Shown here: one piece after another, positions 60,252 to 64,000 of the stretch
Position numbering within the stretch: the first letter of the stretch is position 1
Layout of the letters: every line of letters begins with the position of its first letter
Assembly: GCF_900167535.1 (NCBI RefSeq)
Contig: NZ_FUYE01000003.1
Location: 416,414-480,413, forward strand
DNA from: Prosthecobacter debontii
GTDB lineage: Bacteria; Verrucomicrobiota; Verrucomicrobiia; Verrucomicrobiales; Verrucomicrobiaceae
Length of the DNA stretch: 64,000 nucleotides
Direction: 5' to 3'
Program-made: the position numbers and the translations under genes
The notes under the pieces: model-generated
The model's database searches: none
What the model was told of the DNA's origin: nothing
What the model saw: only the letters and a program-made list of their open reading frames with translations

Positions 60252-61043
60252 ATGACCTACGTTCGCAAACCCATCATTGCCGCCAACTGGAAGATGCACA
60301 TGACACCCCAGGAGACGGACGATTTCCTCCGTGCTTTCTCCCGCTTGGTGCCTGAGAAGTGCCCCATCCAAATCGTGGTGGCTCCACCCGCCGTCAGCCT
60401 GAGCAAGGCCCACGAAGTGCTGCTGAACGCTCGTGAAGAGGTGGTGGAGCTAGCCGCACAGAACATGAGCCAATTCCCCGGCGGTGCTTACACGGGTGAG
60501 ATCAGTGCCCGCATGGTGAAGGAGTGCGGCTGCCGCCACGTGATCCTCGGTCACAGCGAGCGCCGCAGCCTGTATGGCGAAACCAACGCGATTGTGAACG
60601 CCAAGGTCCTGGCCGCGCTGGAAGCCCGCCTGCACCCCATCCTTTGCATCGGTGAAACCCTCGAAGAACGCGATGGCGGTCTGATCGAGAAAGTCCTGGA
60701 AAGCCAACTCCGCGAATCCCTCGCTGAAGTGGGTGCCCGCCGCGTGTTGGATGTTGTCATCGCTTATGAGCCCGTCTGGGCCATTGGCACCGGCCGCACC
60801 GCCAGCCCTCAACAGGCTCAGGATGCCCATGCCTTCACCCGCAGCGTGCTCACCGAGATGTTCGGTGAAGACACTGCCCAAAAGATCCGCATCCAATACG
60901 GTGGCAGCGTGAAGCCGAACAACATGGCCGAGTTGATCAGCCAGAAAGACGTGGACGGCGCGCTCGTCGGCGGTGCGAGCCTGGAAAGCGGTAGCTTCTG
61001 GGAAATCTGCCGTGCAGCCATCGACTGGGCCAACGCTCAGTAA
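60252..61043 (+). CDS. tpiA: Triosephosphate isomerase
   Basis: A 263-residue TIM-barrel enzyme that interconverts dihydroxyacetone phosphate and glyceraldehyde 3-phosphate. Conserved elements: PIIAANWKMHMTPQET with Asn and Lys at the active site, VILGHSERRSLYGETN with the electrophilic His, VIAYEPVWAIGTGRTASPQQAQDAH with catalytic Glu, IQYGGSVKPNNMAELISQKDVDGALVGGASLE at the phosphate loop. It lies downstream of pgk and is closed by a strong terminator. Confidence 0.98.
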   Translation: MTYVRKPIIAANWKMHMTPQETDDFLRAFSRLVPEKCPIQIVVAPPAVSLSKAHEVLLNAREEVVELAAQNMSQFPGGAYTGEISARMVKECGCRHVILGHSERRSLYGETNAIVNAKVLAALEARLHPILCIGETLEERDGGLIEKVLESQLRESLAEVGARRVLDVVIAYEPVWAIGTGRTASPQQAQDAHAFTRSVLTEMFGEDTAQKIRIQYGGSVKPNNMAELISQKDVDGALVGGASLESGSFWEICRAAIDWANAQ

Positions 61044-61065
61044 TCCAACTCTCCCTTTTGAATGA

Positions 61066-61101
61066 GGCGGCATCGGTTCCCGATGCCGCCTTTTCTTTTT
61101 T
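61066..61101 (+). terminator. Rho-independent terminator after tpiA
   Basis: GGCGGCATCG (61066-61075) pairs with CGATGCCGCC (61081-61090) around GTTCC, followed by TTTTCTTTTTT. It ends the pgk-tpiA unit. Confidence 0.95.
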
Positions 61102-61207
61102 CATTTCAGTTGCATTCCGCAACCCCGATCCTCCTTACTCCGTCACGGGGGCGATCGAGCCACCCGTGTGAACTTGAACCGCAAATTTTTCTGACGACAT
61201 AAATCGA

Positions 61208-61705
61208 ATGACACCTCGCCTCATCGCCATTGTCGCCATGGCCGGCAATCGAGTTATCGGCCGCGATGGCACTCTGCCCTGGCACTTTCCCGAAGACCTC
61301 AAATTCTTCAAACGCACCACGCTGGGACACCCTATCCTGATGGGCCGAACCACCTTCGAGTCCATCGGCAAACCCCTCCCGGGTCGTCAAAACATCGTGC
61401 TCAGTCGCACCCTGGAACCTCGCGAAGGGCTGACCGTCATTCGCCATGTCTCCGAACTGGCCTCCGTTACCGCTGGAGCCGAAACGGTTTTTGTCATCGG
61501 CGGTGCCCAAGTCTATGCCGAGCTCTTGCCTCAGTGCGATGCCCTGTATCTAACTTTGGTCAAAGGGGACTACGAGGGCGATACCCACCTCCCCGCTTTT
61601 GAGCATCAGTTTGAGTTGAAGCAGGTGCTGGAGGAAACCGAGGCCTTGGAGTTTCGCTATTACGAGCGCAGGTCGTCCGACCAACCGACGGTGGAAAAAG
61701 TGTAA
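61208..61705 (+). CDS. folA: Dihydrofolate reductase
   Basis: A 165-residue enzyme that reduces dihydrofolate to tetrahydrofolate with NADPH. The opening LIAIVAMAGNRVIGRDGTLPWHFPEDLKFFKRTTLGHPILMGRTTFESIGKPLPGRQNIVLSR contains the Met20-type loop, the substrate-binding acid (Glu in FPEDLKFF) and the NADPH site. VFVIGGAQVYAELLP and DALYLTLVKGDYEGDTHLPAFE are further signatures. thyA is not adjacent. The gene is separated from tpiA by the terminator; the kinase gene follows by 39 bp, so folA may share a transcript with it. Confidence 0.97.
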   Translation: MTPRLIAIVAMAGNRVIGRDGTLPWHFPEDLKFFKRTTLGHPILMGRTTFESIGKPLPGRQNIVLSRTLEPREGLTVIRHVSELASVTAGAETVFVIGGAQVYAELLPQCDALYLTLVKGDYEGDTHLPAFEHQFELKQVLEETEALEFRYYERRSSDQPTVEKV

Positions 61706-61744: not shown

Positions 61745-64000
61745 ATGAAAAGCGATTCTCCTCTCTCTGCCACCTGTCCCTCCTGCGGACAGGCACTTCC
61801 AGACAATGCGCCTCAAGGTTTCTGCCCGCACTGCCTCATGGCCGGTGCGTTACAAACCGCCCCACTACCTGCTCAAGCTGCCACCGAGGATATGGCGGAA
61901 GACATCCGAACGGCTTTTCCTCAACTAGAAATTCATGAATGGTTAGGCGCTGGTGGCATGGGCCGTGTCTTCAAAGCACGACAACCCACCTTGGACCGAT
62001 GGGTAGCGCTGAAGCTGCTGTCTCCCGAGCAAGCACGGGACCCAGAATGGACCGAACGGTTCACTCGCGAAGCCCGAGCCCTAGCGCGCCTGAATCACCC
62101 GCACATCGTCCAGGTCCATGACTTCGGGTCAGCTAACCTAGGCGCTCAGGAGCAGCCCTATCTTATGATGGAGTATGTGGACGGAGTGAATCTCCGCCAA
62201 GCCCTGCAAAATGGAGGTCTTACAGCCCAAGAGGCTCTCAGCATCGTGCCCAAACTCTGCGATGCTCTCCAATATGCTCACGAGCATGATGTACTGCACC
62301 GTGACATCAAACCCGAGAACATCCTCATCGACACGGAAGGCCGAGTCAAAATCGCCGATTTCGGACTGGCTAAATTGAGGGATGAAATTCAACCCGATTT
62401 CACGCTCACCCAAAGCGGAGCCAAGCTAGGCACCCTAGCCTATATGGCTCCAGAACAGGTAGAACGTCCACAGGATGTAGATCATCGTGCAGATATCTAC
62501 AGCTTAGGCGTGGTATTTTATGAGATGCTCACCGGCGAGCTCCCTTTGGGCCGCTTTCCCAACCCGAGCGAGTGCAATGGCACTGATCCTCGCTTGGATG
62601 CAGTGGTGCTGAGAACCTTGGAAAAGCAGCGAGAGAAGCGGTTTCAAAATGCGGCCGAGATGAAGTCTGGTCTCGAAAACGCCAGAACTGCCCCCATGCC
62701 AGTTGGGCCGACACCTTCCTGGAATGAGTTGAACTATGAGTATCGCAGCGAGAGCGGCATTGGCAGCTGGCCGTGGTTACACATTGTGTTCGGCAAGGAC
62801 CCATTGACCGGTAAAATGAAACGTGCCCGAGGCATTGTGGCCATCGGCGTACATGCCACAGGAGTCCTGGCTTTGGGAGTGATCTCTTTTGGGCTGATCA
62901 GTTGGGGTGTCTTCTCGGTGGGATTGCTAGCCTCTGGGGTGCTGGCCGCAGGTATCGGTTCGTTAGGCGTCCTTAGCCTCGGTTTGGTCGGTAGCTATGG
63001 TGTTTTCGCCGTGGCTCCCGTAGCGTTAGGAGTGACGCCTATCGGCTACCTCAGCGCCGGAGTGACGGCGATAGGTCGAGATGTAGCTAGCACGACAGGG
63101 ACCGTGGAGCCACAGGCGGCGGCTTGGGGCGACTATTGGATGCCGATCCTCGGTCGCATCCACACCTATTGGAATGCCGTCGGCTTAACGACCATCATGC
63201 TCGCCGGCACGTGGGCCGCTTGGCGCAGCCGCAAACCTAGGTCTCATATCGCTCTTTTTTTCGTCCTCTCGCTCCTGGGCCCGTTTAACCTCCTTTTGAG
63301 CCGAGCCACCTTAACTGCCCCCCGCTTTGGAGAACAACTTAGACGCGAAGAAAACACCCGGCGTCAGGAAAAGCGACGAGCCGAGTGGGCGAGCTTGGAT
63401 AAGCTAAGAAAGCTGAGTCAAAGTTGGGTCACCGAAGCCTGCCGCACAGACTCTCCATCCGCTCGAGGCAAAGCGCTCCTGGCCATTCAGGAAGCTCTGG
63501 CCTCCTCCCAGATGGATCTTGTTCGCGCTGGTCTGCTCTCCATTCCAAAGATCAGTCAAACCAGCGCTGACAAAAAGACGTTTCGTGAACTGGCACGAGC
63601 ACATTTGAACTTCGCCGATGTGGACATTTCCAATTTGGCTATCTCAGCCGTCGTCTCAATGGAGCCGGAATCCACAGATGTGGATCGCATCTTGGCCATG
63701 GTCGACAACGCCAAAGAATCTCAGTTGATCCCAATGGCACATGCTTTAGGCACACTTAGCCATCGCGATTTTACCGGGCGCTATGCGGATCCCATGTTAT
63801 CGCTTCTTGAACGCGGAATGGTCATCGCAAAGGCGAAGACCCGAGGAGATAGCTATGCTTTCGATGAACGCATGCTGTTAGGCCCTTTGTGGGGAGCGCG
63901 AATCTCCCCCGAAATCGAAGCCAAAATCCTCGAGTGGAGTCATTTGGATGAGCTTGATGATGGGACCATGACCACCGCAGGCGTTGGCTACAATGTTTTC
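61745..64000 (+). CDS. Membrane-associated Ser/Thr protein kinase with N-terminal zinc ribbon (3' end outside window)
   Basis: Open for 752 codons to the right edge, so incomplete. A zinc ribbon uses Cys11, Cys14, Cys27 and Cys30 (CPSCGQ...CPHC). The Hanks-type kinase spans about 62-310: LGAGGMGRVFKA P-loop, catalytic Lys90, HRDIKPEN (185-192), DFG (205-207), APE (235-237), so it should be active. Residues 363-444 are a glycine-pentad repeat with Gly every fifth residue. One or two hydrophobic membrane segments follow (about 480-530), then an Arg/Glu-rich coil and a helical HEAT-like part. Proteins of this type are plentiful in Verrucomicrobia and are thought to act with FPETQWATI-type sigma factors; the one here is 47 kb away. 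Confidence 0.93.
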   Translation, partial: MKSDSPLSATCPSCGQALPDNAPQGFCPHCLMAGALQTAPLPAQAATEDMAEDIRTAFPQLEIHEWLGAGGMGRVFKARQPTLDRWVALKLLSPEQARDPEWTERFTREARALARLNHPHIVQVHDFGSANLGAQEQPYLMMEYVDGVNLRQALQNGGLTAQEALSIVPKLCDALQYAHEHDVLHRDIKPENILIDTEGRVKIADFGLAKLRDEIQPDFTLTQSGAKLGTLAYMAPEQVERPQDVDHRADIYSLGVVFYEMLTGELPLGRFPNPSECNGTDPRLDAVVLRTLEKQREKRFQNAAEMKSGLENARTAPMPVGPTPSWNELNYEYRSESGIGSWPWLHIVFGKDPLTGKMKRARGIVAIGVHATGVLALGVISFGLISWGVFSVGLLASGVLAAGIGSLGVLSLGLVGSYGVFAVAPVALGVTPIGYLSAGVTAIGRDVASTTGTVEPQAAAWGDYWMPILGRIHTYWNAVGLTTIMLAGTWAAWRSRKPRSHIALFFVLSLLGPFNLLLSRATLTAPRFGEQLRREENTRRQEKRRAEWASLDKLRKLSQSWVTEACRTDSPSARGKALLAIQEALASSQMDLVRAGLLSIPKISQTSADKKTFRELARAHLNFADVDISNLAISAVVSMEPESTDVDRILAMVDNAKESQLIPMAHALGTLSHRDFTGRYADPMLSLLERGMVIAKAKTRGDSYAFDERMLLGPLWGARISPEIEAKILEWSHLDELDDGTMTTAGVGYNVF

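What the first reader, a model, noticed from the sequence alone, without database searches (positions are those of the whole stretch)
62831..63076. Glycine-pentad repeat next to the kinase domain
From residue 363 Gly recurs at exactly every fifth position eleven times (363 to 413), then, after a shift, at 419, 429, 434, 439 and 444. The unit is roughly V/L-x-A/S-x-G. This strict period of five is not a normal transmembrane helix and resembles a solenoid or a tightly packed beta structure, perhaps embedded in or lying on the membrane. It may be the sensing or oligomerising part of the kinase.
Basis: seen in the sequence. Interest (0 to 1): 0.5.

Follow-up and report, generated by a model that had tools for sequence, protein, structure and literature searches.

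The report
Glycine-pentad solenoid in a bacterial kinase
A bacterial signalling kinase carries, where its sister kinases have an ordinary membrane helix, an unusual glycine-every-fifth-residue rod that is predicted to fold as a tight beta-solenoid and probably sits in the membrane; the same unnamed module is shared by other kinds of gene regulators in distant bacteria.

Summary
No shuffle of the region reached 11 (maximum 8 in 100,000). It belongs to a conserved, unnamed domain: a short N-terminal cap ([FY]EY[RK]S...P..H) plus Gly-pentads. I found it fused to Hanks kinases, ECF sigma factors, HAAS domains (with PadR next door) and Xre-type HTH domains, and alone, in Verrucomicrobiota (44 of 387 genomes) and Bacillota_A (18 of 398, some of them spurious). 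AlphaFold2 predicts a beta-solenoid with pLDDT 86-97 for the window protein and 89-97 for an HTH relative. Homologues pair the pentads into ten-residue units. The array has no charges over 82 residues here (median 73 over 63 relatives). Three of four close kinase paralogues have one ordinary transmembrane helix at this position, and K/R patterns in sigma- and HAAS-linked relatives place the array's far end outside. Best reading: a membrane-embedded, probably membrane-crossing, beta-solenoid that links the kinase, and the ECF sigma factor encoded by an overlapping gene, to the envelope. The fold is well supported by prediction; the membrane placement is inferred; the sensing role is untested.

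The parts
61745..64000 (+). Hanks-type Ser/Thr kinase gene (866 aa; the stop lies 345 bases beyond the window's end)
   Evidence: PF00069 E 3.3e-50
61775..61834 (+). zinc-ribbon-like CxxC...CxxC segment, aa 11-30
   Evidence: sequence; DZR and Zn_Ribbon_1 matches are below cut-off
61928..62551 (+). protein kinase domain, aa 62-269 in the Pfam match, with HRDIKPEN and DFG motifs
   Evidence: motifs read
62735..62830 (+). N-cap of the solenoid domain, aa 331-362 (YEYRS...P..H...DPLTGKMKRARG), K/R-rich
   Evidence: E, S, P and H invariant and Y nearly so in the 29 rows of A4
62831..63076 (+). Gly-pentad array aa 363-444: 82 residues without D, E, K or R, predicted beta-solenoid
62984..62998 (+). 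register slip of one residue between G413 and G419 (aa 414-418)
   Evidence: comparable slips in relatives
63167..63313 (+). two predicted helices, aa 475-494 and 500-523, low confidence (pLDDT about 50-67); possible membrane helices separated by RSRKPRS

Best explanation
The array is the core of a conserved accessory domain: a cap followed by a thin, tightly wound beta-solenoid with about ten residues per coil, Gly at the corners and Ala/Ser packed small inside. Its outward positions are almost all aliphatic or aromatic, so it is buried in the cytoplasmic membrane. In this kinase it takes the place of the single transmembrane helix of the sister receptor kinases. With the cap on the cytosolic side, the solenoid links the cytosolic kinase to whatever lies beyond. 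A membrane or envelope change would alter or cluster the solenoid, switch the kinase, and so the ECF sigma factor encoded by the overlapping downstream gene. SHOWN here: the pattern, its conservation, domain shuffling, predicted fold, ten-residue pairing, charge-free length, paralogue replacement, sigma-gene overlap. INFERRED: membrane burial and crossing, coil geometry, kinase acting on sigma. NOT TESTED: the signal.
For: Fold: AF2 on the window segment gives beta structure with pLDDT 86-97 for model residues 11-120, DSSP gaps ten residues apart at 46-47/56-57 and at 102-103/112-113; full-length HTH relative: strands 113-223, mostly 89-97. Ten-residue unit: GG pairs at lag 10 228, lag 20 160, against lag 5 59 and lag 15 48 (66 regions pooled, 3 of them spurious). 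Composition of 772 strict pentads: G+3 is A/S in 91%, G+2 V/L/I/F in 78%, G+4 L/I/V/F in 72%. Charge: pentads 4-10 nearly free of charge; charge-free stretch median 73 residues, 59 of 63 at least 50, window 82; at 4.8 A per ten-residue coil (textbook rise, recalled) that is about 35-39 A, near a bilayer. Replacement: 3 of 4 close kinase paralogues in the same genome have one ordinary transmembrane helix at aa 319-348 and the fourth none; none has the array there. Parity: sigma-fused relatives have one helix after the array in 16 of 18 counted, with more K/R after than before it in 16 of 16; HAAS-fused 7 of 8 with a helix, one equal. Regulation: domain on kinase, ECF sigma, HTH and HAAS beside PadR; kinase stop overlaps the sigma start in 10 of 11 named-genome kinase loci and in the window's genome.
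Against: No solved structure resembles it by Foldseek, so the fold is a prediction; I could not read coordinates, handedness or coil length from the models. A first, cruder test on kinase-fused relatives was weak: K/R after > before in 11 of 19, equal in 2, less in 6. The window protein itself is ambiguous: only one helix passes the threshold, with RSRKPRS before it and an Arg-rich stretch after it. HTH-fused and stand-alone members, and HAAS members L103, L104, L111 and L114, have no clear membrane helix, so a non-membrane solenoid is possible. The sequences in the topology counts are related, not independent. I recall no proven cytoplasmic-membrane protein that crosses the bilayer as a beta-solenoid. 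The 29-row alignment is shallow.
Confidence: 0.45

Rival explanations
1. A cytosolic or sub-membrane solenoid that works as an oligomerisation or docking platform. Its hydrophobic faces pack against each other or partners, as in the trimeric YadA-type head; a separate helix, where present, holds the protein to the membrane.
For: VIA-align ranks a YadA-like head (3s6l) first, Z 8.0, rmsd 5.9, 94 aligned. HTH-fused and stand-alone members lack a clear membrane helix. The beta-helical Toastrack domain, also coupled to HAAS, is proposed as a sub-membrane assembly platform, and HAAS-pentapeptide-repeat fusions are called intracellular there (PMC11237479, passages read).
Against: Both outward positions stay hydrophobic over some 70 charge-free residues; in helix-bearing relatives K/R parity puts the far end outside; the nearest paralogues use a transmembrane helix at this point.
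Confidence: 0.35
2. The known quadrilateral pentapeptide-repeat fold (four pentads, 20 residues per coil), with Gly in place of the usual small residue; too short to cross a membrane.
For: Period five; D/N occur at G+1, as in A(D/N)Lxx (motif recalled). One HAAS-linked relative, L115, weakly matches Pentapeptide_2 (E 0.0022, below cut-off). A 20-residue coil is also compatible with a ten-residue sequence period.
Against: No match to PF00805 in the window domain or in the 18 A1 members. DSSP gaps repeat every ten residues. Foldseek lists no pentapeptide-repeat protein among its nine PDB matches, though repeats can be missed by such searches.
Confidence: 0.12
3. Ordinary transmembrane helices with a chance or small-residue Gly pattern.
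For: Very hydrophobic and charge-free; Gly/Ala/Ser-rich membrane helices are common (recalled).
Against: Period 5 kept over more than 60 diverged sequences; two models give beta structure at high confidence and no helix in the array; shuffles.
Confidence: 0.04

Closest known systems
HAAS-PadR membrane-stress regulators with pentapeptide repeats or Toastrack (PMC11237479)
   Same: HAAS domain fused to a repeat solenoid, PadR gene directly upstream; [quoted passage not shown]
   Different: Their example (AOH56696.1) could not be fetched, so identity with this domain is unknown; they describe no Gly-pentad family, kinase or fused-sigma version in the passages I read
STPK-activated ECF sigma factors (PknT-EcfP, PknS-EcfK; PMC8999054, passages)
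   Same: Kinase gene next to an ECF sigma gene, here overlapping by four bases in the window's genome
   Different: Those passages mention no Gly-pentad domain; phosphorylation not tested here
GLTT repeat PF01744 and Pentapeptide_2 PF01469
   Same: Gly-bearing five-residue repeats; L115 passes the GLTT cut-off (E 6.8e-11, 42.1 vs 21 bits)
   Different: The window scores only 13.4 bits for GLTT; no cap motif is part of those models (recalled)
YadA-like trimeric autotransporter head (3s6l)
   Same: Beta roll with A-x-G steps (recalled); VIA Z 8.0 over 94 residues
   Different: Extracellular, trimeric, roughly 14-residue turns (recalled); no sequence match
Midge antifreeze protein (recalled, from no call)
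   Same: Ten-residue solenoid coils xxCxGxYCxG, Gly every five, small core residue at the same step
   Different: Disulfide-stapled, soluble, eukaryotic; no structure compared here

Membership tests
Hanks-type Ser/Thr kinase | kinase fold with HRD and DFG motifs | tested here: met
   PF00069 E 3.3e-50; motifs in the translation
Pentapeptide repeat PF00805 | match to the Pfam model | tested here: not met
   not listed at E up to 10 for the window segment nor at E up to 1 for 18 members
Pentapeptide repeat PF00805 | right-handed quadrilateral solenoid, 20 residues per coil | tested here: inconclusive
   no such chain among Foldseek or VIA rows, which does not exclude it; DSSP gaps every ten residues
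GLTT repeat PF01744 | score above the curated cut-off of 21 bits | tested here: not met
   window 13.4 bits; relative L115 does pass with 42.1
Pentapeptide_2 PF01469 | score above the curated cut-off of 26.4 bits | tested here: not met
   not listed for the window; L115 18.3 bits
YadA-like head | left-handed trimeric beta roll | tested here: inconclusive
   VIA Z 8.0, rmsd 5.9, 94 aligned; handedness and oligomer not readable
Toastrack | match to its Pfam models (DUF2154, DUF4097, DUF2807) | tested here: not met
   none listed
STPK-regulated ECF sigma pair | kinase and ECF sigma genes adjacent, in one direction | tested here: met
   overlap in the window's genome and in 10 of 11 kinase loci; PF04542 E 6.8e-07, PF07638 E 1e-05 and TIGR02937 E 7.7e-13 for the window's sigma
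STPK-regulated ECF sigma pair | kinase phosphorylates the sigma factor | not testable with these tools
   needs a kinase assay
Receptor Ser/Thr kinase | single transmembrane helix between kinase and outer domain | tested here: not met
   the Gly-pentad array stands there instead; paralogues L125, L127 and L128 have the helix, L126 has none

The most novel reading that the evidence does not exclude
The Gly-pentad array is a genuinely membrane-spanning beta-solenoid: a filled, single-chain beta rod that crosses the cytoplasmic membrane in place of a transmembrane helix and carries signals to kinases, sigma factors and DNA-binding regulators in at least two phyla. That would be a third way, besides helix bundles and beta barrels, for a chain to cross a bilayer.
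Probability: 0.3. Interest if true: 0.9.

Novelty: new variant of a known kind. Interest (0 to 1): 0.62.

Why it matters
A domain shared by kinases, sigma factors, HTH regulators and HAAS proteins, yet absent from the Pfam, NCBIfam and PHROGs libraries searched (one relative, L115, passes GLTT), points to an overlooked membrane-linked signalling module. If it crosses the bilayer as a beta-solenoid it breaks the rule that cytoplasmic-membrane spans are helices, and the question is directly testable with a small stand-alone member of 130-160 residues.

Tried and rejected
Transmembrane helices: rejected by period, conservation and models. DNA-level tandem repeat: none. A second copy in the own genome: only a hit at E 0.21 with a stop inside. 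Phage origin: no relative in viral contigs, no PHROGs match, no BFVD structure match at E <= 0.001. Plasmids: one partial hit. PDB by sequence: one hit, a GliT chain at E 0.032, its segments weak, judged chance. Foldseek and VIA list no pentapeptide-repeat chain for the window model. VIA on the HTH model only covered the HTH part, so it says nothing on the solenoid. Searches for print on a membrane beta-solenoid, midge antifreeze protein decads, Gly every fifth residue, PPE-MPTR solenoids or Verrucomicrobia ECF extensions returned nothing useful; the library lacks most subscription papers. Low-complexity or wrong-frame rows dropped: L116, L118 and L119; L035 and L036 (weak hits, no domain). 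L122 (same place as L118) and fragment L121 were left in the crude count; 19 sigma proteins given, L091 not recognised, L033 wrongly capped, L044 below the helix threshold; L033 shows equal K/R before and after.

Errors mended: one search read minus-strand loci in the wrong direction; one search crashed on one protein; one search took parts of some arrays for helices and is kept only as a result against; one search was a report in the wrong format.

Full report
WHAT WAS CLAIMED AND WHETHER IT IS THERE. The gene starting at 61745 encodes a Hanks-type kinase (PF00069 E 3.3e-50). Gly stands at exactly every fifth residue from 363 to 413, then at 419, 429, 434, 439 and 444; codons 363-444 are bases 62831-63076. 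No shuffle reached the run of 11: the maximum was 8 in 100,000 for the region and 5 in 5,000 for the whole protein. There is no DNA tandem repeat. The gene runs on beyond the window to an 866-residue protein.

A CONSERVED DOMAIN WITH NO NAME. The array alone has no match above cut-off in Pfam (only GLTT, 13.4 bits against 21) or NCBIfam, nor have 18 relatives; PHROGs has none. Searching relatives of the genome found it in 27 of 56 genomes at E <= 0.01, counting two hits without the domain (L035, L036: one search left both unclassified). Read in the right direction, these show a cap of the form [FY]EY[RK]SK....G.P.[LV]H in front of the array. In the 29 rows of A4 the cap's E, S, P and H are invariant. 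A scan of named genomes gave 28 loci: 11 kinases, 6 sigma factors, 11 Xre-type HTH proteins of Clostridia. A phylum sample found it in 44 of 387 Verrucomicrobiota genomes at 1e-5; of the 30 loci, 5 are kinases (one is the window), 13 sigma, 12 neither, and of these 12, 11 look like stand-alone proteins and one (L097) has a HAAS-like start beside a PadR gene. In Bacillota_A it was in 18 of 398; some of these rows are low-complexity or wrong-frame (L116, L118, L119, L122), so 18 is an upper figure. Most of the rest carry a HAAS-like N-terminus; PF22564 was checked for L103 (24.2 bits, below cut-off 27), L107 (36.7) and L115 (35.0), and four upstream PadR genes were confirmed (PF03551, E 1e-22 to 1e-25). 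L115 itself passes the GLTT cut-off. One-residue slips in the register also occur in relatives.

ORGANISM. One search places the genomes G001-G034 in the window's genus. G030 contig 68 (62300 bases) has the length of NZ_JAQSEA010000068.1, titled Prosthecobacter; I infer that the window is from that genus or one near it.

FOLD. AlphaFold2 with 29 sequences gave, for window residues about 333-442, beta structure at pLDDT 86-97 (overall mean 75.8, pTM 0.57; the following helices are at about 50-67). For the full-length HTH relative L057 with 15 sequences the array is at 89-97 (mean 88.5). Homologues point to the same unit: GG pairs are spaced 10 (228) or 20 (160) rather than 5 (59) or 15 (48), and in strict pentads a G at G+1 is followed by another in 57 of 255 steps but follows a non-G in 199 of 424. 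G+3 is A/S in 91% of 772 pentads, G+2 and G+4 mostly aliphatic or Phe. Foldseek found nothing similar in the PDB (best E 4.4) or BFVD (no E <= 0.001). VIA ranks a YadA-like head first (Z 8.0, rmsd 5.9, 94 aligned). A missing match is no proof of a new fold, and repeats are easily missed.

WHERE IT SITS. (a) The longest stretch without D, E, K or R has a median of 73 residues in 63 non-redundant relatives (quartiles 62.5 and 81; 59 of 63 at least 50), and is 82 in the window, residues 363-444, which is the Gly array itself. At 4.8 A per coil (recalled) that is 35-39 A. Charges and W/Y/H lie towards the ends. (b) Among four close kinase paralogues in the same genome, three (L125, L127, L128) have one ordinary transmembrane helix at aa 319-348, just after the kinase, and one (L126) none above threshold; none carries the array there. 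The array fills that slot in the window protein. (c) Parity: a kinase, sigma factor or HAAS domain must be cytosolic. Sigma-fused relatives have exactly one helix after the array in 16 of 18 counted, with more K/R behind it in 16 of 16. HAAS-fused relatives with one helix after the array have more K/R behind it in 7 of 8, equal in one. The kinase L072 has three helices with K/R-rich inner ends. By the positive-inside rule (established knowledge) these tails are inside, so the far end of the array is outside. Against: the first crude count on kinase relatives was 11 of 19; the window protein itself is ambiguous; HTH-fused and stand-alone members show no clear helix; the sequences are related; the sigma proteins have two to four candidate helices before the cap, so their cap side rests on charge as well.

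OUTPUT. The kinase stop codon overlaps the start of an ECF sigma gene in the window's genome (L124 2856-3548) and in 10 of 11 named kinase loci, by four bases in nine and one base in one. In other lineages the sigma factor is fused to the domain itself. STPK-activated ECFs are known: PknT-EcfP, PknS-EcfK (PMC8999054, passages; PMC13147305, listing with start of abstract only). So the likely path is envelope, solenoid, kinase, sigma; the links are inferred from gene and domain arrangement.

COMPARISON. [quoted passage not shown] It may concern this domain; I could not fetch their example. Midge antifreeze protein (recalled) has the same Gly spacing with ten-residue coils.

VERDICT.

Noticed in passing
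just beyond the window: L124:2856-3548 (window genome): ECF sigma gene overlapping the kinase stop by four bases, followed by a 318-aa protein without Pfam or NCBIfam match
   Followed up: partly
L125, L126, L128 (own genome): Kinase paralogues next to sigma-like genes whose outer domains differ; by eye one ends in a thioredoxin-like part and two in repeat or hydrolase-like parts
   Followed up: no
L064 and similar kinases: C-terminal membrane part with SdpI (PF13630 E 1e-09) and a sub-threshold signal-peptidase-like end (PF10502 E 0.0026)
   Followed up: partly
L120 (unnamed Bacillota_A genome): Stand-alone 196-aa protein with repeated GAIAIG-type decads that lacks the cap motif; no Pfam match
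   Followed up: no
L053, L065: A second sigma-like start about 820 bases after the first, behind the kinase: duplicated or broken sigma gene
   Followed up: no
window 60252-61705: Upstream genes look like triosephosphate isomerase and dihydrofolate reductase (recognised by eye)
   Followed up: no
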